Notes under the pieces: model-generated
The model's database searches: none
What the model was told of the DNA's origin: nothing
Seen by the model: the letters and a program-made list of their open reading frames with translations, nothing else
Position numbers and translations under genes: made by a program
Assembly (NCBI RefSeq): GCF_005239225.2
Contig: NC_133301.1
Location: 4,179,157 to 4,243,156, forward strand
DNA: 64,000 bases
Direction: 5' to 3'
Source: Populus alba
Taxonomy: Eukaryota; Streptophyta; Magnoliopsida; Malpighiales; Salicaceae
Shown here: in pieces, positions 14,161 through 43,280 of the stretch
Position numbering within the stretch: position 1 is the first letter of the stretch
How the letters are laid out: each line of letters opens with the position of its first letter

Positions 14161-14375
14161 GTTTCCTTCGTTATACCCAATCTGGAATTTCCTTCACATA
14201 TTAACAGTTGTTGGCACCTTTTACCTATTTACCGTTAATTATTTTTTCTTACGGATCTTGCCTTTACATAATACTTTTTATATACTTTACTATTCTATTA
14301 TATATTTCAATAAGATTTCTACATTGCCTTTAAATTATGTTAAATCATCTGACATATTTTAACAATTCATATATA
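14161..14375 (+). repeat. Diverged left edge of the array (older unit)
   Basis: Aligns by eye with 16300-16485: CACATATTAACAGTTGTTGG here against TACATATTAAAGGTTGGTGG there, then the shared TTTTGCC-like and CATAAT-like blocks with many substitutions. From 14376 onward the match to the other units becomes essentially exact, an abrupt boundary. Confidence 0.65.
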
Positions 14376-14754
14376 ATGACTAATAAGATCAATACTATAT
14401 GAAAGATAAAAAAGACATAAAAATAATAATAAAAAAAAATGAATAAAGAAACCCGAACCAATGAAACTTTATTTGAAAGTAAGATAAAGTGAATTAGCAT
14501 CTAACAAAAAACTTTACAGGGGAGTTAACTTAAGAGATTCAATAACAATGTGTTGTTACTAACTCACATTGAATAAATATATATTTTAGCTTCATTTAAT
14601 GAATAATTTAATGAATGTATAATAAAAACCGAAAAAAATGTTATGCATCATTGAAAATCCCTACCTCCTCTCTAGGTCTATATATTAACCTTGCATGATC
14701 CTCATTTTTGAAAATATCTTTAAAAACATTTATCCATATCTGGCATCCATTATC

Positions 14755-15181
14755 ATGGCAGGTGGAAATAACCTTTTCATTTTTGTGGCCACGCTCTTCC
14801 GCAGTTGGAGTAATGCTAAACTCTCCAAAACACACAAATGCTTTCTGGAACCCGTCAAAGTATCCCGAACCAGTTCCGGGGTATTTTAAGGTTTTGGATC
14901 GATGTGAAAAGCCTCTAGCAACAAAATTTCCATCTTGTAGTAACGCAACCCTGGCAGCAATATTCAAGAAAAAACGCATTCCCAGCAAGTGCTGTCCCGA
15001 AGTCACCAAGTTTTCAAAATTTTGCTACCATGCTTTGGGGTTGTTTGTTGCCACCACACCGAATTTCGTATTGACCGTGCCGGAGTTTTTTGAACGGACT
15101 GAAAAGGTTTATGATCACTGTCTTCGAGTAGTTCGATCACCTTCAAAGCCTCGTCGTGGTCGTAAGAGAGGAACTCAATAG
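14755..15181 (+). pseudogene. Array copy 1, prolamin-like secreted protein, frameshifted
   Basis: Same gene as copy 5, but an extra C in the signal-peptide part (CTTCCGC at about 14796-14802, against CTTCGC elsewhere) moves the start out of frame with the cysteine domain. From the normal ATG the product ends early at 14889. The mature six-cysteine domain remains open in the shifted frame to the TAG at 15179-15181. TATA box at 14679-14688. The extra C may be real or a consensus error. Confidence 0.85.
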
Positions 15182-16864
15182 GGGGTGCATTTGTATTCAG
15201 TGTTCCGCACATACAATTATGTATTTTTTTATCGACCACCAACACGTGAATAAAATATATAATTAATTATAAATACCTCAGGCTTTTTTTATACCGTCAA
15301 TTTTAATTCATTTTAGATGGTTTAGTGAGGAGCAATTGGTTTATGTTGTTTATAAGACAGTCGTTGATAGGAATGCACTTCAATACCTCATGTCCGGTGG
15401 GATTGTAGAGTTAAATTGGCCACATTTAAAATTGGTTTCGGAAACTTGCACTTTTGTATTTGTGTTTGTAATTTGCACCGAGAAAGCTGGCATGGTAATT
15501 GGCTAAGGTTGAGGCTGGCCTTATGCAATCACATCACAATATATTTATGTGAGTATCTAACCTGGCCATGAGCTTTTTTCTGTTAGACTACTTGGAGATT
15601 AGGGTCTTGTTGTGATTTTATGGGTAAATATAAAAATGTATGCTTTAGCGTAATTACCATTATTTAGAAGTCCATGGAGCTGAATTGGGTTGATTGTCTA
15701 GTCCTATAAAAAAAAAACAAGAGAAGTTAAATAATAGTAATGAGTCATAATAAATAAGAATGTTGATACCATCAGTCGATAAGGACAGTAAATTTTTATT
15801 TTTTGTTTCGATGGTTGGGGCACCCCTCCATGGCAATCCTTTCTAGTAATATTGATGGTACAATTAGCAGAGCGTTGCTAATAGGCGCCTTCTTAAGAGT
15901 TATTTGATACAATATTAAGGGGGTGCCACGGTTGGCAATAGACTCGTGTTTACGACTTATTTAGATTTATTAGGCTCAATCATTGGATACTCTCGAGATT
16001 GACTAGTTTGAATTGTTTAGTAAACATATAAACAAGCTAGTCTTAAACTTTGACATATGCATAATTTTATGAACTAATCCCCTGTTCATATAATGTTAAA
16101 AGATCGAAGATGATAGAATATGTAAAATAAATATAAAACATGTTTATTTTTCTTCATCATAGATTCTGTGATATATTAAATATGTGTTTCAGCTTAAAGA
16201 CAAATTGATAAATAACTCTGTTATATCTAATAAACCAAAGCACACCATTGTTTTACCGTGCAAAATAAGTTATACCGAGCATCGTTGCATCCGTGGTGGC
16301 CATGGCTGCAGATCTGGAGTTTCCTTTACATATTAAAGGTTGGTGGCACCTTTTGCCCCAATACCCTTAGTAACTTTTCTTCTTATGGATTTTGCCCTTG
16401 CATAATTTTTATTTTTTCATTTTACCATTCCAGTGAACATTTTGATAATATTTCCATTGTGAGACACATGTTAAAAATTTGTATATTGACTAATAAGATC
16501 AATACTATATGAAAGATAAAAAAGACATAAAAAATAATAATAAAAAAAATGAATAAAGAAACCCGAACCAATGAAACTTTATTTGAAAGTAAGATAAAGT
16601 GAATTAGCATCTAACAAAAAACTTTACAGGGGAGTTAACTTAAGAGATTCAATAACAATGTGTTGTTACTAACTCACATTGAATAAATATATATTTTAGC
16701 TTCATTTAATGAATAATTTAATGAATGTATAATAAAAACCGAAAAAAAATGTTATGCATCATTGAAAATCCCTACCTCCTCTCTAGGTCTATATATTAAC
16801 CTTGCATGATCCTCATTTTTGAAAATATCTTTAAAACATTTATCCATATCTGGCATCCATTATC

Positions 16865-17291
16865 ATGGCAGGTGGAAATAACCTTTTCATTTTTGTGGCC
16901 ACGCTCTTCGCAGTTGGAGTAATGCTAAACTCTCCAAAACACACAAATGCTTTCTGGAACCCGTCAAAGTATCCCGAACCAGTTCCGGGGTATTTTAAGG
17001 TTTTGGATCGATGTGAAAAGCCTCTAGCAACAAAATTTCCATCTTGTAGTAACGCAACCCTGGCAGCAATATTCAAGAAAAAACGCATTCCCAGCAAGTG
17101 CTGTCCCGAAGTCACCAAGTTTTTCAAAATTTTGCTACCATGCTTTGGGGTTGTTTGTTGCCACCACACCGAATTTCGTATTGACCGTGCCGGAGTTTTT
17201 TGAACGGACTGAAAAGGTTTATGATCACTGTCTTCGAGTAGTTCGATCACCTTCAAAGCCTCGTCGTGGTCGTAAGAGAGGAACTCAATAG
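16865..17291 (+). pseudogene. Array copy 2, prolamin-like secreted protein, frameshifted C-terminus
   Basis: Start and signal peptide are normal and C50, C61, C79 and C80 are present. A fifth T at about 17119-17124 shifts the frame before the fifth cysteine. The shifted frame ends at 17203 after 112 residues with a different tail (ending DRAGVF). The original stop position is 17289-17291. Without the fifth and sixth conserved cysteines in place, the usual disulfide pattern cannot form. Confidence 0.85.
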
Positions 17292-18971
17292 GGGGTGCAT
17301 TTGTATTCAGTGTTCCGCACATACAATTATGTATTTTTTTATCGACCACCAACACGTGAATAAAATATATAATTAATTATAAATACCTCAGGCTTTTTTT
17401 ATACCGTCAATTTTAATTCATTTTAGATGGTTTAGTGAGGAGCAATTGGTTTATGTTGTTTATAAGACAGTCGTTGATAGGAATGCACTTCAATACCTCA
17501 TGTCCGGTGGGATTGTAGAGTTAAATTGGCCACATTTAAAATTGGTTTCGGAAACTTGCACTTTTGTATTTGTGTTTGTAATTTGCACCGAGAAAGCTGG
17601 CATGGTAATTGGCTAAGGTTGAGGCTGGCCTTATGCAATCACATCACAATATATTTATGTGAGTATCTAACCTGGCCATGAGCTTTTTTCTGTTAGACTA
17701 CTTGGAGATTAGGGTCTTGTTGTGATTTTATGGGTAAATATAAAAATGTATGCTTTAGCGTAATTACCATTATTTAGAAGTCCATGGAGCTGAATTGGGT
17801 TGATTGTCTAGTCCTATAAAAAAAAACAAGAGAAGTTAAATAATAGTAATGAGTCATAATAAATAAGAATGTTGATACCATCAGTCGATAAGGACAGTAA
17901 ATTTTTATTTTTGTTTCGATGGTTGGGGCACCCCTCCATGGCAATCCTTTCTAGTAATATTGATGGTACAATTAGCAGAGCGTTGCTAATAGGCGCCTTC
18001 TTAAGAGTTATTTGATACAATATTAAGGGGGTGCCACGGTTGGCAATAGACTCGTGTTTACGACTTATTTAGATTTATTAGGCTCAATCATTGGATACTC
18101 TCGAGATTGACTAGTTTGAATTGTTTAGTAAACATATAAACAAGCTAGTCTTAAACTTTGACATATGCATAATTTTATGAACTAATCCCCTGTTCATATA
18201 ATGTTAAAAGATCGAAGATGATAGAATATGTAAAATAAATATAAAACATGTTTATTTTTCTTCATCATAGATTCTGTGATATATTAAATATGTGTTTCAG
18301 CTTAAAGACAAATTGATAAATAACTCTGTTATATCTAATAAACCAAAGCACACCATTGTTTTACCGTGCAAAATAAGTTATACCGAGCATCGTTGCATCC
18401 GTGGTGGCCATGGCTGCAGATCTGGAGTTTCCTTTACATATTAAAGGTTGGTGGCACCTTTTGCCCCAATACCCTTAGTAACTTTTCTTCTTATGGATTT
18501 TGCCCTTGCATAATTTTTATTTTTTCATTTTTACCATTCCAGTGAACATTTTGATAATATTTCCATTGTGAGACACATGTTAAAAATTTGTATATTGACT
18601 AATAAGATCAATACTATATGAAAGATAAAAAAGACATAAAAAATAATAATAAAAAAAATGAATAAAGAAACCCGAACCAATGAAACTTTATTTGAAAGTA
18701 AGATAAAGTGAATTAGCATCTAACAAAAACTTTACAGGGGAGTTAACTTAAGAGATTCAATAACAATGTGTTGTTACTAACTCACATTGAATAAATATAT
18801 ATTTTAGCTTCATTTAATGAATAATTTAATGAATGTATAATAAAAACCGAAAAAAATGTTATGCATCATTGAAAATCCCTACCTCCTCTCTAGGTCTATA
18901 TATTAACCTTGCATGATCCTCATTTTTGAAAATATCTTTAAAACATTTATCCATATCTGGCATCCATTATC

Positions 18972-19398
18972 ATGGCAGGTGGAAATAACCTTTTCATTTT
19001 TTGTGGCCACGCTCTTCGCAGTTGGAGTAATGCTAAACTCTCCAAAACACACAAATGCTTTCTGGAACCCGTCAAAGTATCCCGAACCAGTTCCGGGGTA
19101 TTTTAAGGTTTTGGATCGATGTGAAAAGCCTCTAGCAACAAAATTTCCATCTTGTAGTAACGCAACCCTGGCAGCAATATTCAAGAAAAAACGCATTCCC
19201 AGCAAGTGCTGTCCCGAAGTCACCAAGTTTTCAAAATTTTGCTACCATGCTTTGGGGTTGTTTGTTGCCACCACACCGAATTTCGTATTGACCGTGCCGG
19301 AGTTTTTTGAACGGACTGAAAAGGTTTATGATCACTGTCTTCGAGTAGTTCGATCACCTTCAAAGCCTCGTCGTGGTCGTAAGAGAGGAACTCAATAG
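18972..19398 (+). pseudogene. Array copy 3, prolamin-like secreted protein, frameshifted signal peptide
   Basis: A sixth T at about 18998-19003 (five in intact copies) puts the normal ATG out of frame. An ATG at 18913 is in frame with the cysteine domain and would give 161 residues. However, it lies only a few bases after the TATA box and would lack the normal signal peptide, so it is an unlikely start. The cysteine domain itself is unchanged. Confidence 0.85.
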
Positions 19399-21078
19399 GG
19401 GGTGCATTTGTATTCAGTGTTCCGCACATACAATTATGTATTTTTTTTATCGACCACCAACACGTGAATAAAATATATAATTAATTATAAATACCTCAGG
19501 CTTTTTTTATACCGTCAATTTTAATTCATTTTAGATGGTTTAGTGAGGAGCAATTGGTTTATGTTGTTTATAAGACAGTCGTTGATAGGAATGCACTTCA
19601 ATACCTCATGTCCGGTGGGATTGTAGAGTTAAATTGGCCACATTTAAAATTGGTTTCGGAAACTTGCACTTTTGTATTTGTGTTTGTAATTTGCACCGAG
19701 AAAGCTGGCATGGTAATTGGCTAAGGTTGAGGCTGGCCTTATGCAATCACATCACAATATATTTATGTGAGTATCTAACCTGGCCATGAGCTTTTTTCTG
19801 TTAGACTACTTGGAGATTAGGGTCTTGTTGTGATTTTATGGGTAAATATAAAAATGTATGCTTTAGCGTAATTACCATTATTTAGAAGTCCATGGAGCTG
19901 AATTGGGTTGATTGTCTAGTCCTATAAAAAAAAACAAGAGAAGTTAAATAATAGTAATGAGTCATAATAAATAAGAATGTTGATACCATCAGTCGATAAG
20001 GACAGTAAATTTTTATTTTTGTTTCGATGGTTGGGGCACCCCTCCATGGCAATCCTTTCTAGTAATATTGATGGTACAATTAGCAGAGCGTTGCTAATAG
20101 GCGCCTTCTTAAGAGTTATTTGATACAATATTAAGGGGGTGCCACGGTTGGCAATAGACTCGTGTTTACGACTTATTTAGATTTATTAGGCTCAATCATT
20201 GGATACTCTCGAGATTGACTAGTTTGAATTGTTTAGTAAACATATAAACAAGCTAGTCTTAAACTTTGACATATGCATAATTTTATGAACTAATCCCCTG
20301 TTCATATAATGTTAAAAGATCGAAGATGATAGAATATGTAAAATAAATATAAAACATGTTTATTTTTCTTCATCATAGATTCTGTGATATATTAAATATG
20401 TGTTTCAGCTTAAAGACAAATTGATAAATAACTCTGTTATATCTAATAAACCAAAGCACACCATTGTTTTACCGTGCAAAATAAGTTATACCGAGCATCG
20501 TTGCATCCGTGGTGGCCATGGCTGCAGATCTGGAGTTTCCTTTACATATTAAAGGTTGGTGGCACCTTTTGCCCCAATACCCTTAGTAACTTTTCTTCTT
20601 ATGGATTTTGCCCTTGCATAATTTTTATTTTTTCATTTTACCATTCCAGTGAACATTTTGATAATATTTCCATTGTGAGACACATGTTAAAAATTTGTAT
20701 ATTGACTAATAAGATCAATACTATATGAAAGATAAAAAAGACATAAAAAATAATAATAAAAAAAATGAATAAAGAAACCCGAACCAATGAAACTTTATTT
20801 GAAAGTAAGATAAAGTGAATTAGCATCTAACAAAAACTTTACAGGGGAGTTAACTTAAGAGATTCAATAACAATGTGTTGTTACTAACTCACATTGAATA
20901 AATATATATTTTAGCTTCATTTAATGAATAATTTAATGAATGTATAATAAAAACCGAAAAAAATGTTATGCATCATTGAAAATCCCTACCTCCTCTCTAG
21001 GTCTATATATTAACCTTGCATGATCCTCATTTTTGAAAATATCTTTAAAACATTTATCCATATCTGGCATCCATTATC

Positions 21079-21505
21079 ATGGCAGGTGGAAATAACCTTT
21101 TCATTTTTGTGGCCACGCTCTTCGCAGTTGGAGTAATGCTAAACTCTCCAAAACACACAAATGCTTTCTGGAACCCGTCAAAGTATCCCGAACCAGTTCC
21201 GGGGTATTTTAAGGTTTTGGATCGATGTGAAAAGCCTCTAGCAACAAAATTTCCATCTTGTAGTAACGCAACCCTGGCAGCAATATTCAAGAAAAAACGC
21301 ATTCCCAGCAAGTGCTGTCCCGAAGTCACCAAGTTTTCAAAAATTTTGCTACCATGCTTTGGGGTTGTTTGTTGCCACCACACCGAATTTCGTATTGACC
21401 GTGCCGGAGTTTTTTGAACGGACTGAAAAGGTTTATGATCACTGTCTTCGAGTAGTTCGATCACCTTCAAAGCCTCGTCGTGGTCGTAAGAGAGGAACTC
21501 AATAG
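21079..21505 (+). pseudogene. Array copy 4, prolamin-like secreted protein, frameshifted C-terminus
   Basis: Normal start and first four cysteines. A fifth A at about 21339-21343 shifts the frame just before the fifth cysteine. The shifted frame ends at 21417 (112 residues), at the same stop used by copy 2 although the causal base is different. Original stop position 21503-21505. Confidence 0.85.
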
Positions 21506-23112
21506 GGGGTGCATTTGTATTCAGTGTTCCGCACATACAATTATGTATTTTTTTTATCGACCACCAACACGTGAATAAAATATATAATTAATTATAAATA
21601 CCTCAGGCTTTTTTTATACCGTCAATTTTAATTCATTTTAGATGGTTTTAGTGAGGAGCAATTGGTTTATGTTGTTTATAAGACAGTCGTTGATAGGAAT
21701 GCACTTCAATACCTCATGTCCGGTGGGATTGTAGAGTTAAATTGGCCACATTTAAAATTGGTTTCGGAAACTTGCACTTTTGTATTTGTGTTTGTAATTT
21801 GCACCGAGAAAGCTGGCATGGTAATTGGCTAAGGTTGAGGCTGGCCTTATGCAATCACATCACAATATATTTATGTGAGTATCTAACCTGGCCATGAGCT
21901 TTTTTCTGTTAGACTACTTGGAGATTAGGGTCTTGTTGTGATTTTATGGGTAAATATAAAAATGTATGCTTTAGCGTAATTACCATTATTTAGAAGTCCA
22001 TGGAGCTGAATTGGGTTGATTGTCTAGTCCTATAAAAAAAAACAAGAGAAGTTAAATAATAGTAATGAGTCATAATAAATAAGAATGTTGATACCATCAG
22101 TCGATAAGGACAGTAAATTTTTATTTTTGTTTCGATGGTTGGGGCACCCCTCCATGGCAATCCTTTCTAGTAATATTGATGGTACAATTAGCAGAGCGTT
22201 GCTAATAGGCGCCTTCTTAAGAGTTATTTGATACAATATTAAGGGGGTGCCACGGTTGGCAATAGACTCGTGTTTACGACTTATTTAGATTTATTAGGCT
22301 CAATCATTGGATACTCTCGAGATTGACTAGTTTGAATTGTTTAGTAAACATATAAACAAGCTAGTCTTAAACTTTGACATATGCATAATTTTATGAACTA
22401 ATCCCCTGTTCATATAATGTTAAAAGATCGAAGATGATAGAATATGTAAAATAAATATAAAACATGTTTATTTTTCTTCATCATAGATTCTGTGATATAT
22501 TAAATATGTGTTTCAGCTTAAAGACAAATTGATAAATAACTCTGTTATATCTAATAAACCAAAGCACACCATTGTTTTACCGTGCAAAATAAGTTATACC
22601 GAGCATCGTTGCATCCGTGGTGGCCATGGCTGCAGATCTGGAGTTTCCTTTACATATTAAAGGTTGGTGGCACCTTTTGCCCCAATACCCTTAGTAACTT
22701 TTCTTCTTATGGATTTTGCCCTTGCATAATTTTTATTTTTTCATTTTACCATTCCAGTGAACATTTTGATAATATTTCCATTGTGAGACACATGTTAAAA
22801 ATTTGTATATTGACTAATAAGATCAATACTATATGAAAGATAAAAAAGACATAAAAAATAATAATAAAAAAAATGAATAAAGAAACCCGAACCAATGAAA
22901 CTTTATTTGAAAGTAAGATAAAGTGAATTAGCATCTAACAAAAACTTTACAGGGGAGTTAACTTAAGAGATTCAATAACAATGTGTTGTTACTAACTCAC
23001 ATTGAATAAATATATATTTTTAGCTTCATTTAATGAATAATTTAATGAATGTATAATAAAAACCGAAAAAAATGTTATGCATCATTGAAAATCCCTACCT
23101 CCTCTCTAGGTC

Positions 23113-23122
23113 TATATATTAA
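23113..23122 (+). promoter_or_regulatory. TATA box of the array genes (shown for copy 5)
   Basis: TATATATTAA lies 75 bp upstream of the ATG, giving an expected 5' leader of about 45 nt. The same box precedes every copy, for example at 14679, 16788, 18897, 25219, 29434 and 31539 (approximate where not counted base by base). All copies therefore share the same core promoter. Confidence 0.7.
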
Positions 23123-23187
23123 CCTTGCATGATCCTCATTTTTGAAAATATCTTTAAAACATTTATCCATATCTGGCATCCATTATC

Positions 23188-23613
23188 ATGGCAGGTGGAA
23201 ATAACCTTTTCATTTTTGTGGCCACGCTCTTCGCAGTTGGAGTAATGCTAAACTCTCCAAAACACACAAATGCTTTCTGGAACCCGTCAAAGTATCCCGA
23301 ACCAGTTCCGGGGTATTTTAAGGTTTTGGATCGATGTGAAAAGCCTCTAGCAACAAAATTTCCATCTTGTAGTAACGCAACCCTGGCAGCAATATTCAAG
23401 AAAAAACGCATTCCCAGCAAGTGCTGTCCCGAAGTCACCAAGTTTTCAAAATTTTGCTACCATGCTTTGGGGTTGTTTGTTGCCACCACACCGAATTTCG
23501 TATTGACCGTGCCGGAGTTTTTTGAACGGACTGAAAAGGTTTATGATCACTGTCTTCGAGTAGTTCGATCACCTTCAAAGCCTCGTCGTGGTCGTAAGAG
23601 AGGAACTCAATAG
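23188..23613 (+). CDS. Array copy 5, secreted prolamin-like (ECA1/EC1/DD11-type) six-cysteine protein, intact
   Basis: 141 residues, no intron. Residues 1-29 form a signal peptide (MAGGNNLF, then the hydrophobic core IFVATLFAVGVML), with a plausible cleavage after HTNA. The mature part has six cysteines at 50, 61, 79, 80, 90 and 122 (C-x10-C-x17-CC-x9-C-x31-C). The core text RCEKPL...C, AAIFKKKRIPSKCC and FCYHAL fits the prolamin-like domain (PF05617) of the ECA1 gametogenesis-related, EC1 and DD11 groups. Those proteins are secreted, mainly in ovules, egg or central cells and endosperm; EC1 acts in gamete fusion. The tail is basic (SKPRRGRKRGTQ), an unusual extension. A TATA box lies 75 bp upstream and AATAAA about 75 bp after the stop. 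The function of this member is unknown; the family call is from the pattern, not a search. Confidence 0.88.
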   Translation: MAGGNNLFIFVATLFAVGVMLNSPKHTNAFWNPSKYPEPVPGYFKVLDRCEKPLATKFPSCSNATLAAIFKKKRIPSKCCPEVTKFSKFCYHALGLFVATTPNFVLTVPEFFERTEKVYDHCLRVVRSPSKPRRGRKRGTQ

Positions 23614-25293
23614 GGGGTGCATTTGTATTCAGTGTTCCGCACATACAATTATGTATTTTTTTATCGACCACCAACACGTGAATAAAATATATAATTAATT
23701 ATAAATACCTCAGGCTTTTTTTTATACCGTCAATTTTAATTCATTTTAGATGGTTTAGTGAGGAGCAATTGGTTTATGTTGTTTATAAGACAGTCGTTGA
23801 TAGGAATGCACTTCAATACCTCATGTCCGGTGGGATTGTAGAGTTAAATTGGCCACATTTAAAATTGGTTTCGGAAACTTGCACTTTTGTATTTGTGTTT
23901 GTAATTTGCACCGAGAAAGCTGGCATGGTAATTGGCTAAGGTTGAGGCTGGCCTTATGCAATCACATCACAATATATTTATGTGAGTATCTAACCTGGCC
24001 ATGAGCTTTTTTCTGTTAGACTACTTGGAGATTAGGGTCTTGTTGTGATTTTATGGGTAAATATAAAAATGTATGCTTTAGCGTAATTACCATTATTTAG
24101 AAGTCCATGGAGCTGAATTGGGTTGATTGTCTAGTCCTATAAAAAAAAACAAGAGAAGTTAAATAATAGTAATGAGTCATAATAAATAAGAATGTTGATA
24201 CCATCAGTCGATAAGGACAGTAAATTTTTATTTTTGTTTCGATGGTTGGGGCACCCCTCCATGGCAATCCTTTCTAGTAATATTGATGGTACAATTAGCA
24301 GAGCGTTGCTAATAGGCGCCTTCTTAAGAGTTATTTGATACAATATTAAGGGGGTGCCACGGTTGGCAATAGACTCGTGTTTACGACTTATTTAGATTTA
24401 TTAGGCTCAATCATTGGATACTCTCGAGATTGACTAGTTTGAATTGTTTAGTAAACATATAAACAAGCTAGTCTTAAACTTTGACATATGCATAATTTTA
24501 TGAACTAATCCCCTGTTCATATAATGTTAAAAGATCGAAGATGATAGAATATGTAAAATAAATATAAAACATGTTTATTTTTCTTCATCATAGATTCTGT
24601 GATATATTAAATATGTGTTTCAGCTTAAAGACAAATTGATAAATAACTCTGTTATATCTAATAAACCAAAGCACACCATTGTTTTACCGTGCAAAATAAG
24701 TTATACCGAGCATCGTTGCATCCGTGGTGGCCATGGCTGCAGATCTGGAGTTTCCTTTACATATTAAAGGTTGGTGGCACCTTTTGCCCCAATACCCTTA
24801 GTAACTTTTCTTCTTATGGATTTTGCCCTTGCATAATTTTTATTTTTTCATTTTACCATTCCAGTGAACATTTTGATAATATTTCCATTGTGAGACACAT
24901 GTTAAAAATTTGTATATTGACTAATAAGATCAATACTATATGAAAGATAAAAAAGACATAAAAAATAATAATAAAAAAAATGAATAAAGAAACCCGAACC
25001 AATGAAACTTTATTTGAAAGTAAGATAAAGTGAATTAGCATCTAACAAAAACTTTACAGGGGAGTTAACTTAAGAGATTCAATAACAATGTGTTGTTACT
25101 AACTCACATTGAATAAATATATATTTTAGCTTCATTTAATGAATAATTTAATGAATGTATAATAAAAACCGAAAAAAATGTTATGCATCATTGAAAATCC
25201 CTACCTCCTCTCTAGGTCTATATATTAACCTTGCATGATCCTCATTTTTGAAAATATCTTTAAAACATTTATCCATATCTGGCATCCATTATC

Positions 25294-25719
25294 ATGGCAG
25301 GTGGAAATAACCTTTTCATTTTTGTGGCCACGCTCTTCGCAGTTGGAGTAATGCTAAACTCTCCAAAACACACAAATGCTTTCTGGAACCCGTCAAAGTA
25401 TCCCGAACCAGTTCCGGGGTATTTTAAGGTTTTGGATCGATGTGAAAAGCCTCTAGCAACAAAATTTCCATCTTGTAGTAACGCAACCCTGGCAGCAATA
25501 TTCAAGAAAAAACGCATTCCCAGCAAGTGCTGTCCCGAAGTCACCAAGTTTTCAAAATTTTGCTACCATGCTTTGGGGTTGTTTGTTGCCACCACACCGA
25601 ATTTCGTATTGACCGTGCCGGAGTTTTTTGAACGGACTGAAAAGGTTTATGATCACTGTCTTCGAGTAGTTCGATCACCTTCAAAGCCTCGTCGTGGTCG
25701 TAAGAGAGGAACTCAATAG
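25294..25719 (+). CDS. Array copy 6, secreted prolamin-like six-cysteine protein, intact
   Basis: The predicted 141-residue protein is identical by eye to copy 5, with the same signal peptide, cysteine spacing and basic tail. The promoter and 3' region also match. The gene lies 2106 bp downstream of copy 5 in the same orientation. Confidence 0.88.
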   Translation: MAGGNNLFIFVATLFAVGVMLNSPKHTNAFWNPSKYPEPVPGYFKVLDRCEKPLATKFPSCSNATLAAIFKKKRIPSKCCPEVTKFSKFCYHALGLFVATTPNFVLTVPEFFERTEKVYDHCLRVVRSPSKPRRGRKRGTQ

Positions 25720-27401
25720 GGGGTGCATTTGTATTCAGTGTTCCGCACATACAATTATGTATTTTTTTTATCGACCACCAACACGTGAATAAAATATATA
25801 ATTAATTATAAATACCTCAGGCTTTTTTTATACCGTCAATTTTAATTCATTTTAGATGGTTTAGTGAGGAGCAATTGGTTTATGTTGTTTATAAGACAGT
25901 CGTTGATAGGAATGCACTTCAATACCTCATGTCCGGTGGGATTGTAGAGTTAAATTGGCCACATTTAAAATTGGTTTCGGAAACTTGCACTTTTGTATTT
26001 GTGTTTGTAATTTGCACCGAGAAAGCTGGCATGGTAATTGGCTAAGGTTGAGGCTGGCCTTATGCAATCACATCACAATATATTTATGTGAGTATCTAAC
26101 CTGGCCATGAGCTTTTTTCTGTTAGACTACTTGGAGATTAGGGTCTTGTTGTGATTTTATGGGTAAATATAAAAATGTATGCTTTAGCGTAATTACCATT
26201 ATTTAGAAGTCCATGGAGCTGAATTGGGTTGATTGTCTAGTCCTATAAAAAAAAAACAAGAGAAGTTAAATAATAGTAATGAGTCATAATAAATAAGAAT
26301 GTTGATACCATCAGTCGATAAGGACAGTAAATTTTTATTTTTGTTTCGATGGTTGGGGCACCCCTCCATGGCAATCCTTTCTAGTAATATTGATGGTACA
26401 ATTAGCAGAGCGTTGCTAATAGGCGCCTTCTTAAGAGTTATTTGATACAATATTAAGGGGGTGCCACGGTTGGCAATAGACTCGTGTTTACGACTTATTT
26501 AGATTTATTAGGCTCAATCATTGGATACTCTCGAGATTGACTAGTTTGAATTGTTTAGTAAACATATAAACAAGCTAGTCTTAAACTTTGACATATGCAT
26601 AATTTTATGAACTAATCCCCTGTTCATATAATGTTAAAAGATCGAAGATGATAGAATATGTAAAATAAATATAAAACATGTTTATTTTTCTTCATCATAG
26701 ATTCTGTGATATATTAAATATGTGTTTCAGCTTAAAGACAAATTGATAAATAACTCTGTTATATCTAATAAACCAAAGCACACCATTGTTTTACCGTGCA
26801 AAATAAGTTATACCGAGCATCGTTGCATCCGTGGTGGCCATGGCTGCAGATCTGGAGTTTCCTTTACATATTAAAGGTTGGTGGCACCTTTTGCCCCAAT
26901 ACCCTTAGTAACTTTTCTTCTTATGGATTTTGCCCTTGCATAATTTTTATTTTTTCATTTTACCATTCCAGTGAACATTTTGATAATATTTCCATTGTGA
27001 GACACATGTTAAAAATTTGTATATTGACTAATAAGATCAATACTATATGAAAGATAAAAAAGACATAAAAAATAATAATAAAAAAAATGAATAAAGAAAC
27101 CCGAACCAATGAAACTTTATTTGAAAGTAAGATAAAGTGAATTAGCATCTAACAAAAACTTTACAGGGGAGTTAACTTAAGAGATTCAATAACAATGTGT
27201 TGTTACTAACTCACATTGAATAAATATATATTTTAGCTTCATTTAATGAATAATTTAATGAATGTATAATAAAAACCGAAAAAAATGTTATGCATCATTG
27301 AAAATCCCTACCTCCTCTCTAGGTCTATATATTAACCTTGCATGATCCTCATTTTTGAAAAATATCTTTAAAACATTTATCCATATCTGGCATCCATTAT
27401 C

Positions 27402-27828
27402 ATGGCAGGTGGAAATAACCTTTTCATTTTTGTGGCCACGCTCTTCGCAGTTGGAGTAATGCTAAACTCTCCAAAACACACAAATGCTTTCTGGAACCCG
27501 TCAAAGTATCCCGAACCAGTTCCGGGGTATTTTAAGGTTTTGGATCGATGTGAAAAGCCTCTAGCAACAAAATTTCCATCTTGTAGTAACGCAACCCTGG
27601 CAGCAATATTCAAGAAAAAACGCATTCCCAGCAAGTGCTGTCCCGAAGTCACCAAGTTTTCAAAATTTTGCTACCATGCTTTGGGGTTGTTTGTTGCCAC
27701 CACACCCGAATTTCGTATTGACCGTGCCGGAGTTTTTTGAACGGACTGAAAAGGTTTATGATCACTGTCTTCGAGTAGTTCGATCACCTTCAAAGCCTCG
27801 TCGTGGTCGTAAGAGAGGAACTCAATAG
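27402..27828 (+). pseudogene. Array copy 7, prolamin-like secreted protein, frameshifted near the C-terminus
   Basis: Normal start, signal peptide and first five cysteines. An extra C at about 27704-27708 (CACACCCGAA against CACACCGAA) shifts the frame after residue 102. The product ends at 27740 (112 residues, tail ending DRAGVF) and loses the sixth cysteine and the basic tail. Of the five frameshifted copies it keeps the most of the domain from the normal ATG. Confidence 0.85.
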
Positions 27829-29508
27829 GGGGTGCATTTGTATTCAGTGTTCCGCACATACAATTATGTATTTTTTTATCGACCACCAACACGTGAATAA
27901 AATATATAATTAATTATAAATACCTCAGGCTTTTTTTATACCGTCAATTTTAATTCATTTTAGATGGTTTAGTGAGGAGCAATTGGTTTATGTTGTTTAT
28001 AAGACAGTCGTTGATAGGAATGCACTTCAATACCTCATGTCCGGTGGGATTGTAGAGTTAAATTGGCCACATTTAAAATTGGTTTCGGAAACTTGCACTT
28101 TTGTATTTGTGTTTGTAATTTGCACCGAGAAAGCTGGCATGGTAATTGGCTAAGGTTGAGGCTGGCCTTATGCAATCACATCACAATATATTTATGTGAG
28201 TATCTAACCTGGCCATGAGCTTTTTTCTGTTAGACTACTTGGAGATTAGGGTCTTGTTGTGATTTTATGGGTAAATATAAAAATGTATGCTTTAGCGTAA
28301 TTACCATTATTTAGAAGTCCATGGAGCTGAATTGGGTTGATTGTCTAGTCCTATAAAAAAAAACAAGAGAAGTTAAATAATAGTAATGAGTCATAATAAA
28401 TAAGAATGTTGATACCATCAGTCGATAAGGACAGTAAATTTTTATTTTTGTTTCGATGGTTGGGGCACCCCTCCATGGCAATCCTTTCTAGTAATATTGA
28501 TGGTACAATTAGCAGAGCGTTGCTAATAGGCGCCTTCTTAAGAGTTATTTGATACAATATTAAGGGGGTGCCACGGTTGGCAATAGACTCGTGTTTACGA
28601 CTTATTTAGATTTATTAGGCTCAATCATTGGATACTCTCGAGATTGACTAGTTTGAATTGTTTAGTAAACATATAAACAAGCTAGTCTTAAACTTTGACA
28701 TATGCATAATTTTATGAACTAATCCCCTGTTCATATAATGTTAAAAGATCGAAGATGATAGAATATGTAAAATAAATATAAAACATGTTTATTTTTCTTC
28801 ATCATAGATTCTGTGATATATTAAATATGTGTTTCAGCTTAAAGACAAATTGATAAATAACTCTGTTATATCTAATAAACCAAAAGCACACCATTGTTTT
28901 ACCGTGCAAAATAAGTTATACCGAGCATCGTTGCATCCGTGGTGGCCATGGCTGCAGATCTGGAGTTTCCTTTACATATTAAAGGTTGGTGGCACCTTTT
29001 GCCCCAATACCCTTAGTAACTTTTCTTCTTATGGATTTTGCCCTTGCATAATTTTTATTTTTTCATTTTACCATTCCAGTGAACATTTTGATAATATTTC
29101 CATTGTGAGACACATGTTAAAAATTTGTATATTGACTAATAAGATCAATACTATATGAAAGATAAAAAAGACATAAAAAATAATAATAAAAAAAATGAAT
29201 AAAGAAACCCGAACCAATGAAACTTTATTTGAAAGTAAGATAAAGTGAATTAGCATCTAACAAAAACTTTACAGGGGAGTTAACTTAAGAGATTCAATAA
29301 CAATGTGTTGTTACTAACTCACATTGAATAAATATATATTTTAGCTTCATTTAATGAATAATTTAATGAATGTATAATAAAAACCGAAAAAAATGTTATG
29401 CATCATTGAAAATCCCTACCTCCTCTCTAGGTCTATATATTAACCTTGCATGATCCTCATTTTTGAAAATATCTTTAAAACATTTATCCATATCTGGCAT
29501 CCATTATC

Positions 29509-29934
29509 ATGGCAGGTGGAAATAACCTTTTCATTTTTGTGGCCACGCTCTTCGCAGTTGGAGTAATGCTAAACTCTCCAAAACACACAAATGCTTTCTG
29601 GAACCCGTCAAAGTATCCCGAACCAGTTCCGGGGTATTTTAAGGTTTTGGATCGATGTGAAAAGCCTCTAGCAACAAAATTTCCATCTTGTAGTAACGCA
29701 ACCCTGGCAGCAATATTCAAGAAAAAACGCATTCCCAGCAAGTGCTGTCCCGAAGTCACCAAGTTTTCAAAATTTTGCTACCATGCTTTGGGGTTGTTTG
29801 TTGCCACCACACCGAATTTCGTATTGACCGTGCCGGAGTTTTTTGAACGGACTGAAAAGGTTTATGATCACTGTCTTCGAGTAGTTCGATCACCTTCAAA
29901 GCCTCGTCGTGGTCGTAAGAGAGGAACTCAATAG
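29509..29934 (+). CDS. Array copy 8, secreted prolamin-like six-cysteine protein, intact
   Basis: 141 residues, identical by eye to copies 5, 6 and 9. The upstream spacer carries one extra A near 28883 relative to the other units, outside the coding sequence. Confidence 0.88.
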   Translation: MAGGNNLFIFVATLFAVGVMLNSPKHTNAFWNPSKYPEPVPGYFKVLDRCEKPLATKFPSCSNATLAAIFKKKRIPSKCCPEVTKFSKFCYHALGLFVATTPNFVLTVPEFFERTEKVYDHCLRVVRSPSKPRRGRKRGTQ

Positions 29935-31613
29935 GGGGTGCATTTGTATTCAGTGTTCCGCACATACAATTATGTATTTTTTTATCGACCACCAACACGT
30001 GAATAAAATATATAATTAATTATAAATACCTCAGGCTTTTTTTATACCGTCAATTTTAATTCATTTTAGATGGTTTAGTGAGGAGCAATTGGTTTATGTT
30101 GTTTATAAGACAGTCGTTGATAGGAATGCACTTCAATACCTCATGTCCGGTGGGATTGTAGAGTTAAATTGGCCACATTTAAAATTGGTTTCGGAAACTT
30201 GCACTTTTGTATTTGTGTTTGTAATTTGCACCGAGAAAGCTGGCATGGTAATTGGCTAAGGTTGAGGCTGGCCTTATGCAATCACATCACAATATATTTA
30301 TGTGAGTATCTAACCTGGCCATGAGCTTTTTTCTGTTAGACTACTTGGAGATTAGGGTCTTGTTGTGATTTTATGGGTAAATATAAAAATGTATGCTTTA
30401 GCGTAATTACCATTATTTAGAAGTCCATGGAGCTGAATTGGGTTGATTGTCTAGTCCTATAAAAAAAAACAAGAGAAGTTAAATAATAGTAATGAGTCAT
30501 AATAAATAAGAATGTTGATACCATCAGTCGATAAGGACAGTAAATTTTTATTTTTGTTTCGATGGTTGGGGCACCCCTCCATGGCAATCCTTTCTAGTAA
30601 TATTGATGGTACAATTAGCAGAGCGTTGCTAATAGGCGCCTTCTTAAGAGTTATTTGATACAATATTAAGGGGGTGCCACGGTTGGCAATAGACTCGTGT
30701 TTACGACTTATTTAGATTTATTAGGCTCAATCATTGGATACTCTCGAGATTGACTAGTTTGAATTGTTTAGTAAACATATAAACAAGCTAGTCTTAAACT
30801 TTGACATATGCATAATTTTATGAACTAATCCCCTGTTCATATAATGTTAAAAGATCGAAGATGATAGAATATGTAAAATAAATATAAAACATGTTTATTT
30901 TTCTTCATCATAGATTCTGTGATATATTAAATATGTGTTTCAGCTTAAAGACAAATTGATAAATAACTCTGTTATATCTAATAAACCAAAGCACACCATT
31001 GTTTTACCGTGCAAAATAAGTTATACCGAGCATCGTTGCATCCGTGGTGGCCATGGCTGCAGATCTGGAGTTTCCTTTACATATTAAAGGTTGGTGGCAC
31101 CTTTTGCCCCAATACCCTTAGTAACTTTTCTTCTTATGGATTTTGCCCTTGCATAATTTTTATTTTTTCATTTTACCATTCCAGTGAACATTTTGATAAT
31201 ATTTCCATTGTGAGACACATGTTAAAAATTTGTATATTGACTAATAAGATCAATACTATATGAAAGATAAAAAAGACATAAAAAATAATAATAAAAAAAA
31301 TGAATAAAGAAACCCGAACCAATGAAACTTTATTTGAAAGTAAGATAAAGTGAATTAGCATCTAACAAAAACTTTACAGGGGAGTTAACTTAAGAGATTC
31401 AATAACAATGTGTTGTTACTAACTCACATTGAATAAATATATATTTTAGCTTCATTTAATGAATAATTTAATGAATGTATAATAAAAACCGAAAAAAATG
31501 TTATGCATCATTGAAAATCCCTACCTCCTCTCTAGGTCTATATATTAACCTTGCATGATCCTCATTTTTGAAAATATCTTTAAAACATTTATCCATATCT
31601 GGCATCCATTATC

Positions 31614-32039
31614 ATGGCAGGTGGAAATAACCTTTTCATTTTTGTGGCCACGCTCTTCGCAGTTGGAGTAATGCTAAACTCTCCAAAACACACAAATGCT
31701 TTCTGGAACCCGTCAAAGTATCCCGAACCAGTTCCGGGGTATTTTAAGGTTTTGGATCGATGTGAAAAGCCTCTAGCAACAAAATTTCCATCTTGTAGTA
31801 ACGCAACCCTGGCAGCAATATTCAAGAAAAAACGCATTCCCAGCAAGTGCTGTCCCGAAGTCACCAAGTTTTCAAAATTTTGCTACCATGCTTTGGGGTT
31901 GTTTGTTGCCACCACACCGAATTTCGTATTGACCGTGCCGGAGTTTTTTGAACGGACTGAAAAGGTTTATGATCACTGTCTTCGAGTAGTTCGATCACCT
32001 TCAAAGCCTCGTCGTGGTCGTAAGAGAGGAACTCAATAG
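31614..32039 (+). CDS. Array copy 9, secreted prolamin-like six-cysteine protein, intact
   Basis: 141 residues, identical by eye to copy 5. It is the last complete gene. Its 3' flank matches the array to about 32490, then part of the unit is missing, so any control element in the lost 3' spacer would be absent here. Confidence 0.88.
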   Translation: MAGGNNLFIFVATLFAVGVMLNSPKHTNAFWNPSKYPEPVPGYFKVLDRCEKPLATKFPSCSNATLAAIFKKKRIPSKCCPEVTKFSKFCYHALGLFVATTPNFVLTVPEFFERTEKVYDHCLRVVRSPSKPRRGRKRGTQ

Positions 32040-32489
32040 GGGGTGCATTTGTATTCAGTGTTCCGCACATACAATTATGTATTTTTTTATCGACCACCAA
32101 CACGTGAATAAAATATATAATTAATTATAAATACCTCAGGCTTTTTTTATACCGTCAATTTTAATTCATTTTAGATGGTTTAGTGAGGAGCAATTGGTTT
32201 ATGTTGTTTATAAGACAGTCGTTGATAGGAATGCACTTCAATACCTCATGTCCGGTGGGATTGTAGAGTTAAATTGGCCACATTTAAAATTGGTTTCGGA
32301 AACTTGCACTTTTGTATTTGTGTTTGTAATTTGCACCGAGAAAGCTGGCATGGTAATTGGCTAAGGTTGAGGCTGGCCTTATGCAATCACATCACAATAT
32401 ATTTATGTGAGTATCTAACCTGGCCATGAGCTTTTTTCTGTTAGACTACTTGGAGATTAGGGTCTTATTGTGATTTTATGGGTAAATTT

Positions 32490-32725
32490 AAATATAAAAA
32501 TATAATAAACCAAAGCACATCATTGTTTTAACGTGCAAAATAAGTTATACCGAACATTGTTACATCCGTGGTGGCAATGGCTGCAGATTTGCAGTGTCGC
32601 TAACATATTAAAGGTTGGTGGCACCTTTTGCTCCAATACCTTTAGTAACTTTTCTTCTTATGGATTTTGGCCTTTCATAATTTTTATTTATTGATGTTAC
32701 CTCTCCACTGTATATTTTGAAAATA
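32490..32725 (+). repeat. Diverged right edge of the array, after an internal deletion
   Basis: At about 32490 the sequence skips roughly 600 bp of the unit (equivalent to about 15640-16230) and continues with a diverged copy of the part around 16230-16445. Example: CATCCGTGGTGGCAATGG here against CATCCGTGGTGGCCATGG in the array. Homology fades near 32725. Confidence 0.75.
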
Positions 32726-33640
32726 TTAGATGGCCTTTTCATAGTAGAAACAATAACATGCCATGATATATATATCTTCATCTTATGGTGTGATTTTATT
32801 ATATCTCCATTGATCATTATAGGAAGTGTTAGTTGGTGGAATATATTGCTATTAAGGATATATAAACTTGGTTGAAAAAGGCCAATATGATGAGGCATTT
32901 AATTTTTCTCCAATTCGGCCAAAGTTCTTATAGGTTTGAAGTCCTCAAAGAGAAGTTTCCAAAAATACATTGGTCTAGTTTATCTTTATAATACTAAAAA
33001 AAAACAAATAAAAACTTTAACAAATAGCATACTTGCATAATCAATTGGAATTTTTATACACTGAATTTTGCATTGCATTTTTTTTAAAAAATTACCAATA
33101 GGTTCATCGTCAAAAGTCCAATCTCTCTGAGAATTCATAATACAAGAGTTGGAAAACAAAGATAGAACACAAATAAAGAATATAGTTAGAGATGAATTAT
33201 AAGAAGGAAATCGAAAGTTCTAAAAGAGAGTTTGCAAAACCCACAAGCCTTTTTGAGATAGTCTTAGCTGAAGAGGTAACTTCTAGTCGTAGTCAAGGTC
33301 TTATTGAAAACAATGCCAAAAATGATACAAGTCTTGATCAAACCTTTGAAATCATTTTGGTATAGTTGGACATATCATTGACAATTGCTAAGCTTTTTGG
33401 GAAAAGCTCGTCTATTTAATTGCATTTGATGAAAGCTATAACACCCTATTCTCATCACTAATGCTAGAGTTAAATGAGTCAACTTTAAAAGCCTTAAATG
33501 TTAGAGATGGGAGATCTGATGTAAAGATAAGATATATGCTGCAACATTACTTTGCCATTTGAGTTTTTTGAACAAGGTCTTTGAGACCACAATTTTTGTA
33601 TTTTTTTTTCCACATGTTTTGGAATCTGCACTGCATTTTT
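32726..33640. other. AT-rich spacer, no gene supported
   Basis: A plus-strand stretch near 33390-33560 (FWEKLVYLIAFDESYNTLFS) is protein-like but short, interrupted and unrecognised. Otherwise only low-complexity DNA was seen. Confidence 0.4.
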
Positions 33641-36753: not shown

Positions 36754-39090
36754 TGTCGCACGTGTACGACGCTGCGGTGATCACCCACCACCAACCTTTC
36801 ATGAAGGTGTGGTATGTATCTATCTATTGTGGAAAATATGGTGAGACAAGGAATTCTTTGTCTCTTAGCAGTAAAAAAAATGGATCGGGAGTCACCACCT
36901 AGTATTCTAGTTACTAGGAACCCTAACTGATCTTTAAAGATCAGGTGCAGAGACTGATTGCGTAAAGGGAAGGTGTTAGCACCCCAACTACGCCCTACCT
37001 AAGGTAGGCTGCATTGTTTTGTCTAATAAAATCTAAGTCATGTTGTAGTTTCTTATTGTTCAGAATATGCATTACGTGTAATCTCATACCCTGGGTTCTA
37101 TTGTCTGAAAAAAGAATTAAATATCCCACAGACGCATTACGTGTAATGTCATGCCCCGGATACTAAGAGATAAACAAAATAAAATTTTTGTTTGTTTTTG
37201 AAATTTTGGCCAATGTTCTCTTGACTTTAATAAATTGGTTATTAAAGCTGAAATGTATGCTAAGCATTGATTTTTGGTGTATATATAAAAAAAACACAAT
37301 ATGATTTTTTTAACTTGGAGACACTTGGCCGTATGCACAAAAACATTTTTTTGTATTTTTTGAAGCTTTGATGAAAACCGGGTATTTTAATATCAGATTT
37401 TTATATTTTTAGCAACGTAAAAACATTGTAAAATTTATAAAAAAATACACGAGAAACTTGTAAAATTACAAACAAATATTTTTTTATTTTTTTATTTAAC
37501 AAAAAATAAAAAAACAGGGCCGGATCTGGCCCACCCATCCTGGGCTGAGCCTGACCCGGCCCATATACTGTGGGCTGGGCTGATGTTCCAGCCCGTAATT
37601 AATGGGGGTTTGGTTACTGTGCGCTGCACAGTAACCAGCAAAAATATAATTAGCTAGTTACTGTGCGCAGCACAGTAACTAGCTAATTAAATTTTCATTT
37701 GCTGCAAAACATAAACGTTCTGCATGCAAATGACACTGAAGCGAACAACAGACAAGGGAGGGGGAGAAGATTACCTGGAGTAGTGGCGACACTGGCAGCG
37801 GCGGAGGCGGTAGAGATGGTGGAGTAGGTGGCGACTGTTTCCCTTCCTTCTCTCCTCTGTTTCTCTCCTCAACTCCCCCTCTGTTTTTGCGTTATCTTCT
37901 CTTTCCCTCTCTCTGTTATGTTCCTCTTCTTCTTCTCTGGTTCTGCTGTGGCGGTGGCAGTGTTGATGGTGCAGGATGGCGGTGGCAGCTGCTGGGAAGC
38001 CCAGTGACTACTGTTGTGCTTCTCCTCCGTGGCGCAGCAACACTAACGTCTGTGTCTTCCTCTTCTAGTCTCCCTTTTCTCTCCTCTGCCGTCCCCAAAA
38101 ATCACTCCCGGCTCCCTCCCTCTTTCTCTTTTCTTTCTCTCTTTCAGTCTCTTAAACAAAACTCTTGGTTCTCTCTCTCGGTTTTCACTTGGAAATCATG
38201 CCAGCCCTCACCCTTTTTTCTTTCCTTTCTTTTTTTTTTTCCTTCGATGCACTCCCTCCTCTGGTATTTATAGGCAGAGGAGGGAAGGGCCACCTTACCC
38301 CTGCCATGGTGCAGGGTAAGGTGAGCCGGGGATTACTCGCAACTTTCGACGTGCCTGACTTTTCCATCATGATGGCGTGGTGGTAGGGTCCGTGTAGGCA
38401 TGGGTTGTGGCAGGGGAAAGCTGCCTCTTCTTCCCCTGTTCCCTGCGTGTGCAGGGGAAGAAGAAGAACTTATGGTGCAGTTCAAAACGGCACCGTAAGC
38501 TTCTTTTTTTTTTAAAAACATTACATGAAATGGCGTTGTTTTGCCCAAAACGCGCAAACAACGCCGTTTCATTTAAAAGGAAATGGCACCAAAATGCATC
38601 AATTTCAGATCAGCCCTTCAATTTGCGCGCCTTTTTCATTGTAGTCCTTAGTTTTGGATTTCTTCAATTAAGTCCTTAATTGGCCACCAGACTTCAACAT
38701 CCATGCAACTAAACCCCTGATTTGAACCAATCAACTTTAAAAAAATATAATTTAACCCCAGAACTTCAATTTCTTTCAATTAAAACCCAAATTGACTTAA
38801 AAATCAAATTTTCTTGCAATCAAACCCTCCAATAATTCAATTAAACCTTCAATAAAATTTAATTGAGTCCAAAAACATCTGATTTGTACTTTCCTTCCTC
38901 AAATAAAATTTCCTTAATCAATAGGGCTCTCACTGGTCAATGATATACTGTCAAATTTCGACATTTATATCTTTGAACTTCCTCAATCAATTTATTTATT
39001 TATTTATTATTTATATATTTTTTACTCTTTTTTTAATAAATTTTTATTTTTCTCTTTTTTTATGCAGGGACCCAAAAATAGGTTACGACA
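36754..39090 (-). repeat. 3' LTR of the Tat/Ogre element
   Basis: Begins TGTCGCACG on the plus strand and ends GGTTACGACA. It matches 52018-54380 closely, with small indels and one clearly different palindromic segment (see 37611-37689). A TATAAATA box (minus) lies at 38265-38272. The AATTAAGTCC/CAATTTGG-type text at 38640-38890 is typical of this LTR family. Confidence 0.92.
37611..37689. repeat. Twin perfect palindromes in the 3' LTR
   Basis: The first has 12-bp arms around a 3-bp loop (37611-37622 and 37626-37637; core GTTACTGTGC / GCACAGTAAC). The second has 20-bp arms around a 3-bp loop (37647-37666 and 37670-37689) and the same core. Either could form a hairpin in single-stranded DNA or RNA. 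Confidence 0.85.
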
Positions 39091-39104
39091 GATGCCCCAT
39101 CTTT
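39091..39104 (-). other. Polypurine tract of the Tat/Ogre element
   Basis: The minus strand reads AAAGATGGGGCATC directly before the 3' LTR start TGTCGTAACC, the expected position. Confidence 0.55.
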
Positions 39105-39223
39105 ACAATGCTTACGGAGCAAAGATTTTGCAAAGTAAGTTTTGTAAAGATAAACAAAAGTGAACTTCCGAAACTGATCTTCTCACAACTTGGTTGATCT
39201 AAAACTCTACTTTTACAACAATT

Positions 39224-40195
39224 CTCTTCAACCAGAACAAAAACTTTGCGTGGCTAGGCTAAACTGAGATTTGTTCGTCGATCCCCTTTAAGTAGAACCA
39301 AAATCTGTGGTTAAGCTAAACTAAGACCCCTTCGCTGATCCCCTTCAACCAGAACCAAAATCCTTTGCAGTTAGGTTAAACTGAGATCCTTCGTCAATCC
39401 CCTTTAACTATAACCAAAGTCTCTTTGTGGCTAGGCTAAACTGAGATCCCTTCGCCGATCCCCTTTAACCATAGCCAAAATCTTTGTGGTTGGGCTGAAT
39501 TGAGATCCATTCGCCGGTCCCCTTCAACCAGAACTAAAATCCTTTGCAGTTAGGCTAAACTGAGATCCCTTCACTGATCCCCTTTAACCATAACCAAATT
39601 CTATGTGTGGTTAAGCTAAACTGAGATCCCTTCGCCGATCCCCTTTAACAAGAACCAACATCTTTGTGGTTGGACTGAACTGAGATCCCTTCGCCGATCC
39701 CCTTCAACCAGAACCAAAATCCTTTGCAGTTAGGTTAAACTGAGATCCCTTCACCGATCCCCTTTAACCATAACCAAAGTCTATTCGTGGCTAGGCTAAA
39801 TTGAGATCCCTTCGCTGATCCCCTTTAACCAGAGCCAAAATCTTTGTGGTTGGGCTGAACTGAGATCCCTTTGTCGATCCCCTTCAACCAGAACCAAAAT
39901 CTTTGTGGTTGGGCTAAACTGAGATCCCTTCGCCGATCCCCTTCAACCAGAACCAAAATCTACGTGGTTGGGCTGAACGAAGATCCCTTCGCCGATCCCC
40001 TTCAACCAGAACCAAAAATCCTGTGTGGTTAGAATAAACTGAGATCTCTTCGTCGATCCCCTTTAACCAAAACCATAATCTATGTGTAGCTGGGTCAACC
40101 TCGAATCCCATCTGGCGACTCCCTTCAACCACAGCTAAAATCTTCATGTTGTGGTTAACCTGAGATTCCTTCTGGCAATCTCCTTTAACCAAAAA
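39224..40195. repeat. 3'-UTR minisatellite, about 16 units of 59-61 bp with 180-bp higher-order period
   Basis: Each unit follows the plan AAAATC, TTTGTGGTT, GGGCTAAACTGAGATCC, TTCGCCGATCCCC, TTCAACCAGAACC. The variant CCTTTGCAGTT recurs at 39361, 39540 and 39720, every third unit, so a trimer of about 180 bp was itself duplicated. Unit lengths are not multiples of three and the open frames across it are not conserved, so it is non-coding. Confidence 0.93.
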
Positions 40196-43274: not shown

Positions 43275-43280
43275 AAAATT

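What the first reader, a model, noticed from the sequence alone, without database searches (positions are those of the whole stretch)
14376..32490. Nine-copy, near-identical tandem array of a secreted six-cysteine prolamin-like (ECA1/EC1/DD11-type) gene
Seen: units of about 2107 bp in one orientation, each with the same TATA box, a 141-residue signal-peptide protein with C-x10-C-x17-CC-x9-C-x31-C, and AATAAA. Known: prolamin-like/ECA1 proteins are secreted and enriched in female gametophyte and seed tissues, and they form large, fast-evolving families. Inference: whole-unit amplification with recent homogenisation points to gene-dosage selection or very recent expansion of one reproductive peptide. 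The basic tail RRGRKR is unusual and might be a processing or binding signal.
Basis: partly seen in the sequence, partly recalled or inferred. Interest (0 to 1): 0.92.

Follow-up and report, generated by a model that had tools for sequence, protein, structure and literature searches.

The report
Nine-copy poplar secreted-protein gene array
A probable poplar genome carries nine back-to-back, essentially identical copies of a small secreted cysteine-rich protein gene that is related to, but distinct from, the egg-cell protein EC1; five of the nine copies are broken as assembled, most likely by sequencing errors.

Summary
The array is in the sequence: nine same-strand gene copies, start codons 2105-2110 bp apart, 14351-32492. 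With homopolymer length ignored, the seven complete units are identical, as are the cores of the two edge units. Inside the array there is no substitution; all 23 differences are one-base run-length changes, 22 longer and 1 shorter, no rarer in coding sequence. Long-read consensus error is the likeliest cause (inference). The protein is a Prolamin_like member (PF05617, 37.3 bits, cut-off 22) with a hydrophobic leader and six cysteines. It is not EC1: the cysteines align, but most EC1 signature residues are missing and the C5-C6 gap is 31, not 21. Six relatives were found: two named (both Populus), four from unnamed sources. The diverged edges (80-88%) look like relics of an older repeat that one unit type overran. 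A role in poplar reproduction is plausible but inferred; no expression data could be examined. Ordinary in kind: recent tandem amplification of a possibly lineage-restricted cysteine-rich protein gene.

The parts
14180..14376 (+). left edge relic: 80% identical to the inner unit boundary over 14180-14272, diverged up to 14376; from 14377 only two run-length differences before the identical core
14351..16376 (+). unit 1 (gene copy 14755-15181, frameshifted by one extra C)
16377..18484 (+). unit 2 (gene copy 16865-17291, frameshifted by one extra T)
18485..20592 (+). unit 3 (gene copy 18972-19398, frameshifted near the start by one extra T)
20593..22700 (+). unit 4 (gene copy 21079-21505, frameshifted by one extra A)
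22701..24807 (+). unit 5, used as reference unit
23188..23613 (+). intact 141-aa Prolamin_like gene, copy 5; TATA-like string at 23113, AATAAA context at 23678
24808..26914 (+). unit 6 (intact gene 25294-25719)
26915..29022 (+). unit 7 (gene copy 27402-27828, frameshifted by one extra C)
29023..31127 (+). unit 8 (intact gene 29509-29934)
31128..32492 (+). unit 9, cut short at unit position 1367 (intact gene 31614-32039); two substitutions at 32467 and 32488
32500..32727 (+). right edge relic: 88% identical to the inner unit boundary (unit position 1956 through the end to 76); about 588 bp that precede this stretch in complete units are missing here

Best explanation
This is a recently homogenised tandem array of one Prolamin_like (PF05617) gene, probably in a poplar. 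Shown: nine gene copies, no substitution among the seven complete units, diverged edges, PF05617 match, hydrophobic N-terminus, six cysteines. Inferred: (1) an older, diverged repeat at this locus was overrun by one 2.1-kb unit type through unequal exchange and/or conversion, leaving relics at both edges with switch points near 14376 and 32467; (2) the five frameshifts are long-read consensus errors that polishing could not remove in identical repeats, so probably all nine copies encode the same protein; (3) the protein is secreted, folds as a small disulphide-bonded helical domain and acts outside the cell in flower, ovule or seed, as a ligand or surface protein between tissues, with the array raising its dose. 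Step 1 is about 85% likely, step 2 about 80%, step 3 about 50%.
For: Units. Column-by-column differences. Homopolymer-compressed identity of 7 of 7 complete units and of both edge cores. In the 18,012 bases, 21 of 21 differences lengthen a run by one base, 5 of 21 in coding sequence against 4.5 expected; the 63-base stretch 14377-14439, left out of that count, adds one longer and one shorter run. Edges at 80-88%. PF05617 at 3.1e-9, 37.3 bits against a cut-off of 22; relatives P0001 and P0002 likewise. Hydropathy peak 2.89 for the 11 residues from residue 7, six cysteines, pI about 9.9. Named Populus relatives. P0003 from Populus alba x berolinensis also carries a stretch 80% identical over 56 residues to the translated 3' part of the unit, so that part of the unit is older than the array. 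Two prolamin-like genes rise between 12 and 24 h after pollination in poplar female flowers (PMC5519698, passages seen); the paper does not say that they are this gene.
Against: No reads, expression data or second assembly were available, so copy number and sequencing error are not proved. Consensus mixing of noisy reads could itself have erased real differences between copies. One of the 23 run-length differences is a shortening, and at one T run 3 of 7 complete units have 8 and 4 have 7, so the direction there is a close vote. The differences fall from 5 in unit 1 (7 with the stretch) to 0 in units 8 and 9, an uneven spread that I do not explain. The structure models are weak (mean pLDDT 54.8 and 64.9). 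Secretion was not tested with a predictor. Reproductive function rests on family resemblance alone.
Confidence: 0.6

Rival explanations
1. The number or the perfection of the copies is an assembly product: the true array has a different copy number, or diverged copies that were flattened into one consensus.
For: No substitutions among seven 2.1-kb units, but one-base run-length changes throughout most of the array, is what an incompletely polished noisy-read region would look like; such regions are also where copy counts go wrong (my inference).
Against: The copies carry different insertions, so they are not one stretch printed repeatedly, and real differences survive at both edges.
Confidence: 0.25
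2. The frameshifts are real and the array is decaying into pseudogenes, with 4 of 9 copies functional.
For: 5 of 9 open frames are broken in the given sequence, and changes are not depleted in coding sequence.
Against: 22 of 23 differences are one-base lengthenings, 1 is a shortening and none is a substitution; natural decay should give substitutions too.
Confidence: 0.12
3. The protein acts on the male side (pollen or pollen coat), in seed storage or in defence, rather than in the female gametophyte.
For: ECA1-like and prolamin-like proteins are also reported from pollen coats of Arabidopsis and Brassica (PMC9856046, one passage seen). The basic, six-cysteine form fits several roles.
Against: The relatives whose function is described in the passages I saw are the egg-cell EC1 proteins (PMC8702097; PMC4160995), but this protein is not EC1, so the argument is weak.
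Confidence: 0.3
4. It is a poplar EC1 gene that activates sperm.
For: Same Pfam domain and six alignable cysteines; Leu, Ser and Asn positions near C2 that are also common in EC1.
Against: Missing EC1-invariant Trp, Asn-Gly, Trp-Pro and Gly-Phe; C5-C6 spacing 31 against 21 in 15 of 15 EC1-type proteins compared; weak profile comparison, E = 0.055.
Confidence: 0.03

Closest known systems
EC1 (egg cell-secreted protein 1), Prolamin_like family
   Same: PF05617 domain, hydrophobic N-terminus, six alignable cysteines with a CC pair and the CC-C gap of 9; one uninterrupted reading frame (cotton EC1 genes have a single exon, PMC8702097, passage)
   Different: besides the cysteines, only one Leu and one Thr are invariant across all 18 aligned rows; C-x10-C-x17-CC-x9-C-x31-C against C-x9-C-x18-CC-x9-C-x21-C in 14 of 15 EC1-type proteins, the fifteenth having x19; 13-22% identity; basic RRGRKR tail
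Populus alba x berolinensis hypothetical proteins NC651_007215 and NC652_039461 (P0003, P0005)
   Same: 89% and 86% identical over 72% and 51% of the query; P0003 shares the unit's downstream region
   Different: one protein record each, on two contigs of 30.1 and 20.4 Mb, with gene models that differ at the ends; whether they sit in arrays cannot be seen from the protein records
Near-identical tandem gene arrays in poplar, such as seven NRX1 genes over about 100 kb (PMC10460964, start of abstract seen in the listing)
   Same: closely linked, highly similar tandem genes in Populus
   Different: other gene family and a much longer spacing

Membership tests
Prolamin_like (PF05617) | profile match above the curated cut-off | tested here: met
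   37.3 bits against 22, residues 50-122, profile 2-66 of 67
Prolamin_like (PF05617) | six conserved cysteines with a CC pair | tested here: met
   Cys 50, 61, 79, 80, 90, 122; invariant in the alignment with 15 EC1-type proteins
Prolamin_like (PF05617) | secreted (signal peptide) | tested here: inconclusive
   hydrophobic stretch from residue 7 and a plausible TNA|F cleavage by eye; no signal-peptide predictor available
EC1 | EC1-type residues (Trp after C1, Asn-Gly between C2 and C3, Trp-Pro after C5, Gly-Phe) and C5-C6 spacing of 21 | tested here: not met
   with 15 of the 120 listed hits (187 found)
EC1 | egg-cell expression and sperm activation | not testable with these tools
   no expression or functional data held
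ECA1 proper / DD11 | closer similarity to these than to EC1 | not tested
   no reference sequence of either was fetched

The most novel reading that the evidence does not exclude
A poplar-restricted, non-EC1 branch of secreted Prolamin_like ligands, one member of which took over its locus very recently: nine copies and no substitution in 18 kb compared, a star-tree upper limit of 1.7e-4 substitutions per site, that is, within some tens of thousands of years at a recalled 2.5e-9 per site per year. Copy number would differ between poplars or sexes and set the dose of a pollination or ovule signal.
Probability: 0.2. Interest if true: 0.55.

Novelty: new member of a known kind. Interest (0 to 1): 0.33.

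Why it matters
If the copies are real and expressed, the locus is a compact natural case for testing whether copy number of a reproductive-type cysteine-rich protein matters for pollination or species barriers in poplars. It is also a warning: gene callers may report five pseudogenes here where probably none exists.

Tried and rejected
EC1 identity: rejected on sequence signatures. The profile comparison (E = 0.055) had little power, because the poplar alignment counted as one effective sequence.

Simple one-step recent duplication between flanking repeats: rejected, because the right edge would then have to match the inner junction exactly, and it is 88% identical and lacks about 588 bp.

Structure: two models, mean pLDDT 54.8 and 64.9. 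Foldseek gave 0 PDB matches at E <= 0.001 for either. VIA-align's best Z, 6.1 (rmsd 3.8, 79 residues) among 344 chains, is within the range its own notes call common for helical models. I draw nothing from the fold beyond 'mostly helical'. No PDB chain matched the window protein by sequence at E <= 1; a profile of the 15 EC1-type proteins found one chain at E 0.59, a kinetochore subunit.

NCBIfam: no match. Literature: 4 papers hold 'prolamin-like' and 'Populus' and 1 paper holds 'PF05617'. The listings of these and show no title or abstract start about this array; some searches listed only the best 20 of 58, 15 of 15,708, 12 of 853 and 10 of 33 papers.

Dropped before a count: one search left out the 63 bases 14377-14439 of unit 1 and the 15 bases of unit 9 before its first substitution. 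One search shows one shorter and one longer A run in the first stretch and none in the second; the report counts them as 23 in all.

Full report
Observation. A 2107-base unit taken at 22701-24807 finds eight further copies in the window, in one orientation and without spacers, from 14351 to 32492. Seven units (2 to 8) are complete; unit 1 starts at unit position 87 and unit 9 ends at 1367. The start of the gene recurs at nine places 2105-2110 bases apart, with the same TATA-like and AATAAA contexts in 9 of 9. In one search four copies give the 141-residue frame from the common ATG; one search confirms 4 of 9 intact and 5 of 9 broken.

Nature of the differences. Aligning the nine units and comparing run lengths shows that, with homopolymer length ignored, units 2-8 are identical over 1420 runs, and the cores of units 1 and 9 are identical to them. 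In the 18,012 bases there are 21 differences, each of which makes a run one base longer (in one case a single C becomes CC). Five are in coding sequence where 4.5 are expected (binomial p = 0.79), 16 elsewhere. Per unit they number 5, 3, 3, 3, 2, 2, 3, 0, 0. The base of comparison is the commonest run length among units 2-8; at one T run that is a 4-to-3 vote. The 63 bases 14377-14439 of unit 1, outside that count, hold one shorter and one longer A run, making 23 differences, 22 longer and 1 shorter. Natural mutation would bring substitutions as well, and selection would thin out frameshifts in a working gene; neither is seen. I therefore read the differences as consensus errors. This is inference: I had no reads.

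Edges. The sequence left of unit 1 (14180 onward) is recognisably the same as the inner unit boundary but diverged: BLAST gives 80% over 14180-14272, and the longer alignment, which runs into the identical core, averages 89%. Substitutions stop at 14376. On the right, unit 9 has substitutions at 32467 and 32488, lacks about 588 bases that follow in complete units, and continues into a stretch 88% identical to the inner boundary up to 32727. A single recent duplication would not give this. An older diverged repeat, later overrun by one unit type through unequal exchange or conversion that stopped short of both ends, would.

The protein. It matches Pfam Prolamin_like (PF05617) with 37.3 bits against a cut-off of 22. 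It has a hydrophobic N-terminus, cysteines at 50, 61, 79, 80, 90 and 122, one N-glycosylation motif and pI about 9.9. Two of the three protein searches used it or its relatives: 5 proteins at E <= 1e-3 from 26 candidates and 6 at E <= 10 from 1439 candidates. Of the six, two are named and both are Populus alba x berolinensis; four come from unnamed JGI or ENA sources, one of them (P0006, 61 residues) matching the N-terminal part only. The same database returned 187 proteins at E <= 1e-3 for an EC1-like bait, the 120 listed coming from many flowering plants, so plants are well represented. The search needs shared five-residue words, so distant relatives are missed, and 'poplar-only' is a lead, not a result. 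P0003 also carries a stretch that matches the translated unit 1134-1301 at 80%.

EC1 comparison. I aligned the window protein, P0001 and P0002 with 15 EC1-type hits chosen from the 120 listed; the 15 alone share 27 invariant columns. Eight columns are invariant in all 18 rows: the six cysteines, one Leu and one Thr; three more (Leu 54, Ser 60, Asn 63) are nearly so. The EC1 Trp after C1, Asn-Gly, Trp-Pro after C5 and Gly-Phe are absent. The gaps between cysteines are 10, 17, 9 and 31 in the window protein, P0001 and P0002, against 9, 18, 9 and 21 in 14 of 15 EC1-type proteins (9, 19, 9 and 21 in the other). A profile comparison was weak (E = 0.055), though the poplar profile counted as one sequence only. 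It is a Prolamin_like protein but not EC1.

Function. EC1 proteins are secreted by the egg cell and lead HAP2/GCS1 to the sperm surface (PMC4160995, passages seen). Two prolamin-like genes rise between 12 and 24 h after pollination in poplar female flowers (PMC5519698, passages seen), while ECA1-like and prolamin-like proteins have been found in pollen coats (PMC9856046, passage seen). A reproductive, extracellular role is therefore the best guess, at about even odds, with the cell type open. Dosage selection is possible but untested.

Host. The two named relatives are from Populus, and two plant microRNA families match (MIR2912, MIR480). MIR480 is, from recall, a poplar family. The own-genome search did not complete, so position, sex linkage and further copies are unknown.

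Age. With no substitution in 18,012 bases the 95% star-tree limit is 1.7e-4 per site. At a recalled poplar rate of 2.5e-9 per site per year that is under about 70,000 years, if the assembly has not flattened real differences.

Verdict. A tidy array, ordinary in kind. It deserves some attention because it looks very young and because I found no description of this branch of the family in the searches named under Tried and rejected.

Noticed in passing
36754-54380: LTR retrotransposon of 17.6 kb with coding pieces on the minus strand (reverse transcriptase 44462-44827, integrase zinc-binding domain 42699-43280, DUF7745 50894-51508), LTRs 36754-39090 and 52018-54380, 5-base target duplication ATTAT. 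It sits inside a second copy of the segment 33642-34582, so the empty site is preserved nearby.
   Followed up: partly
39226-40080: Tandem array with a 59-60 base period, about 14 copies, in the interior of that element next to its left LTR.
   Followed up: no
2976-5192: Remains of a hAT-type transposase (Dimer_Tnp_hAT, DUF4371) in separate minus-strand reading frames.
   Followed up: no
55121-55275 and 61738-61847: Rfam matches MIR2912 (135.2 bits) and MIR480 (51.8 bits), both on the + strand. The first overlaps the end of the duplicated segment that hosts the LTR element.
   Followed up: no
62694-63206: Fragment of a protein kinase on the minus strand (PF07714, 25.2 bits against a cut-off of 23.1).
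   Followed up: no
14351-32492: The one-base run-length differences fall from 5 in unit 1 to 0 in units 8 and 9; the cause of this gradient is unknown.
   Followed up: partly
unit positions 1368-1955 (for example 24068-24655): A stretch of 588 bases present in complete units but absent from the last one; whether it was inserted in the units or deleted at the edge is open.
   Followed up: no
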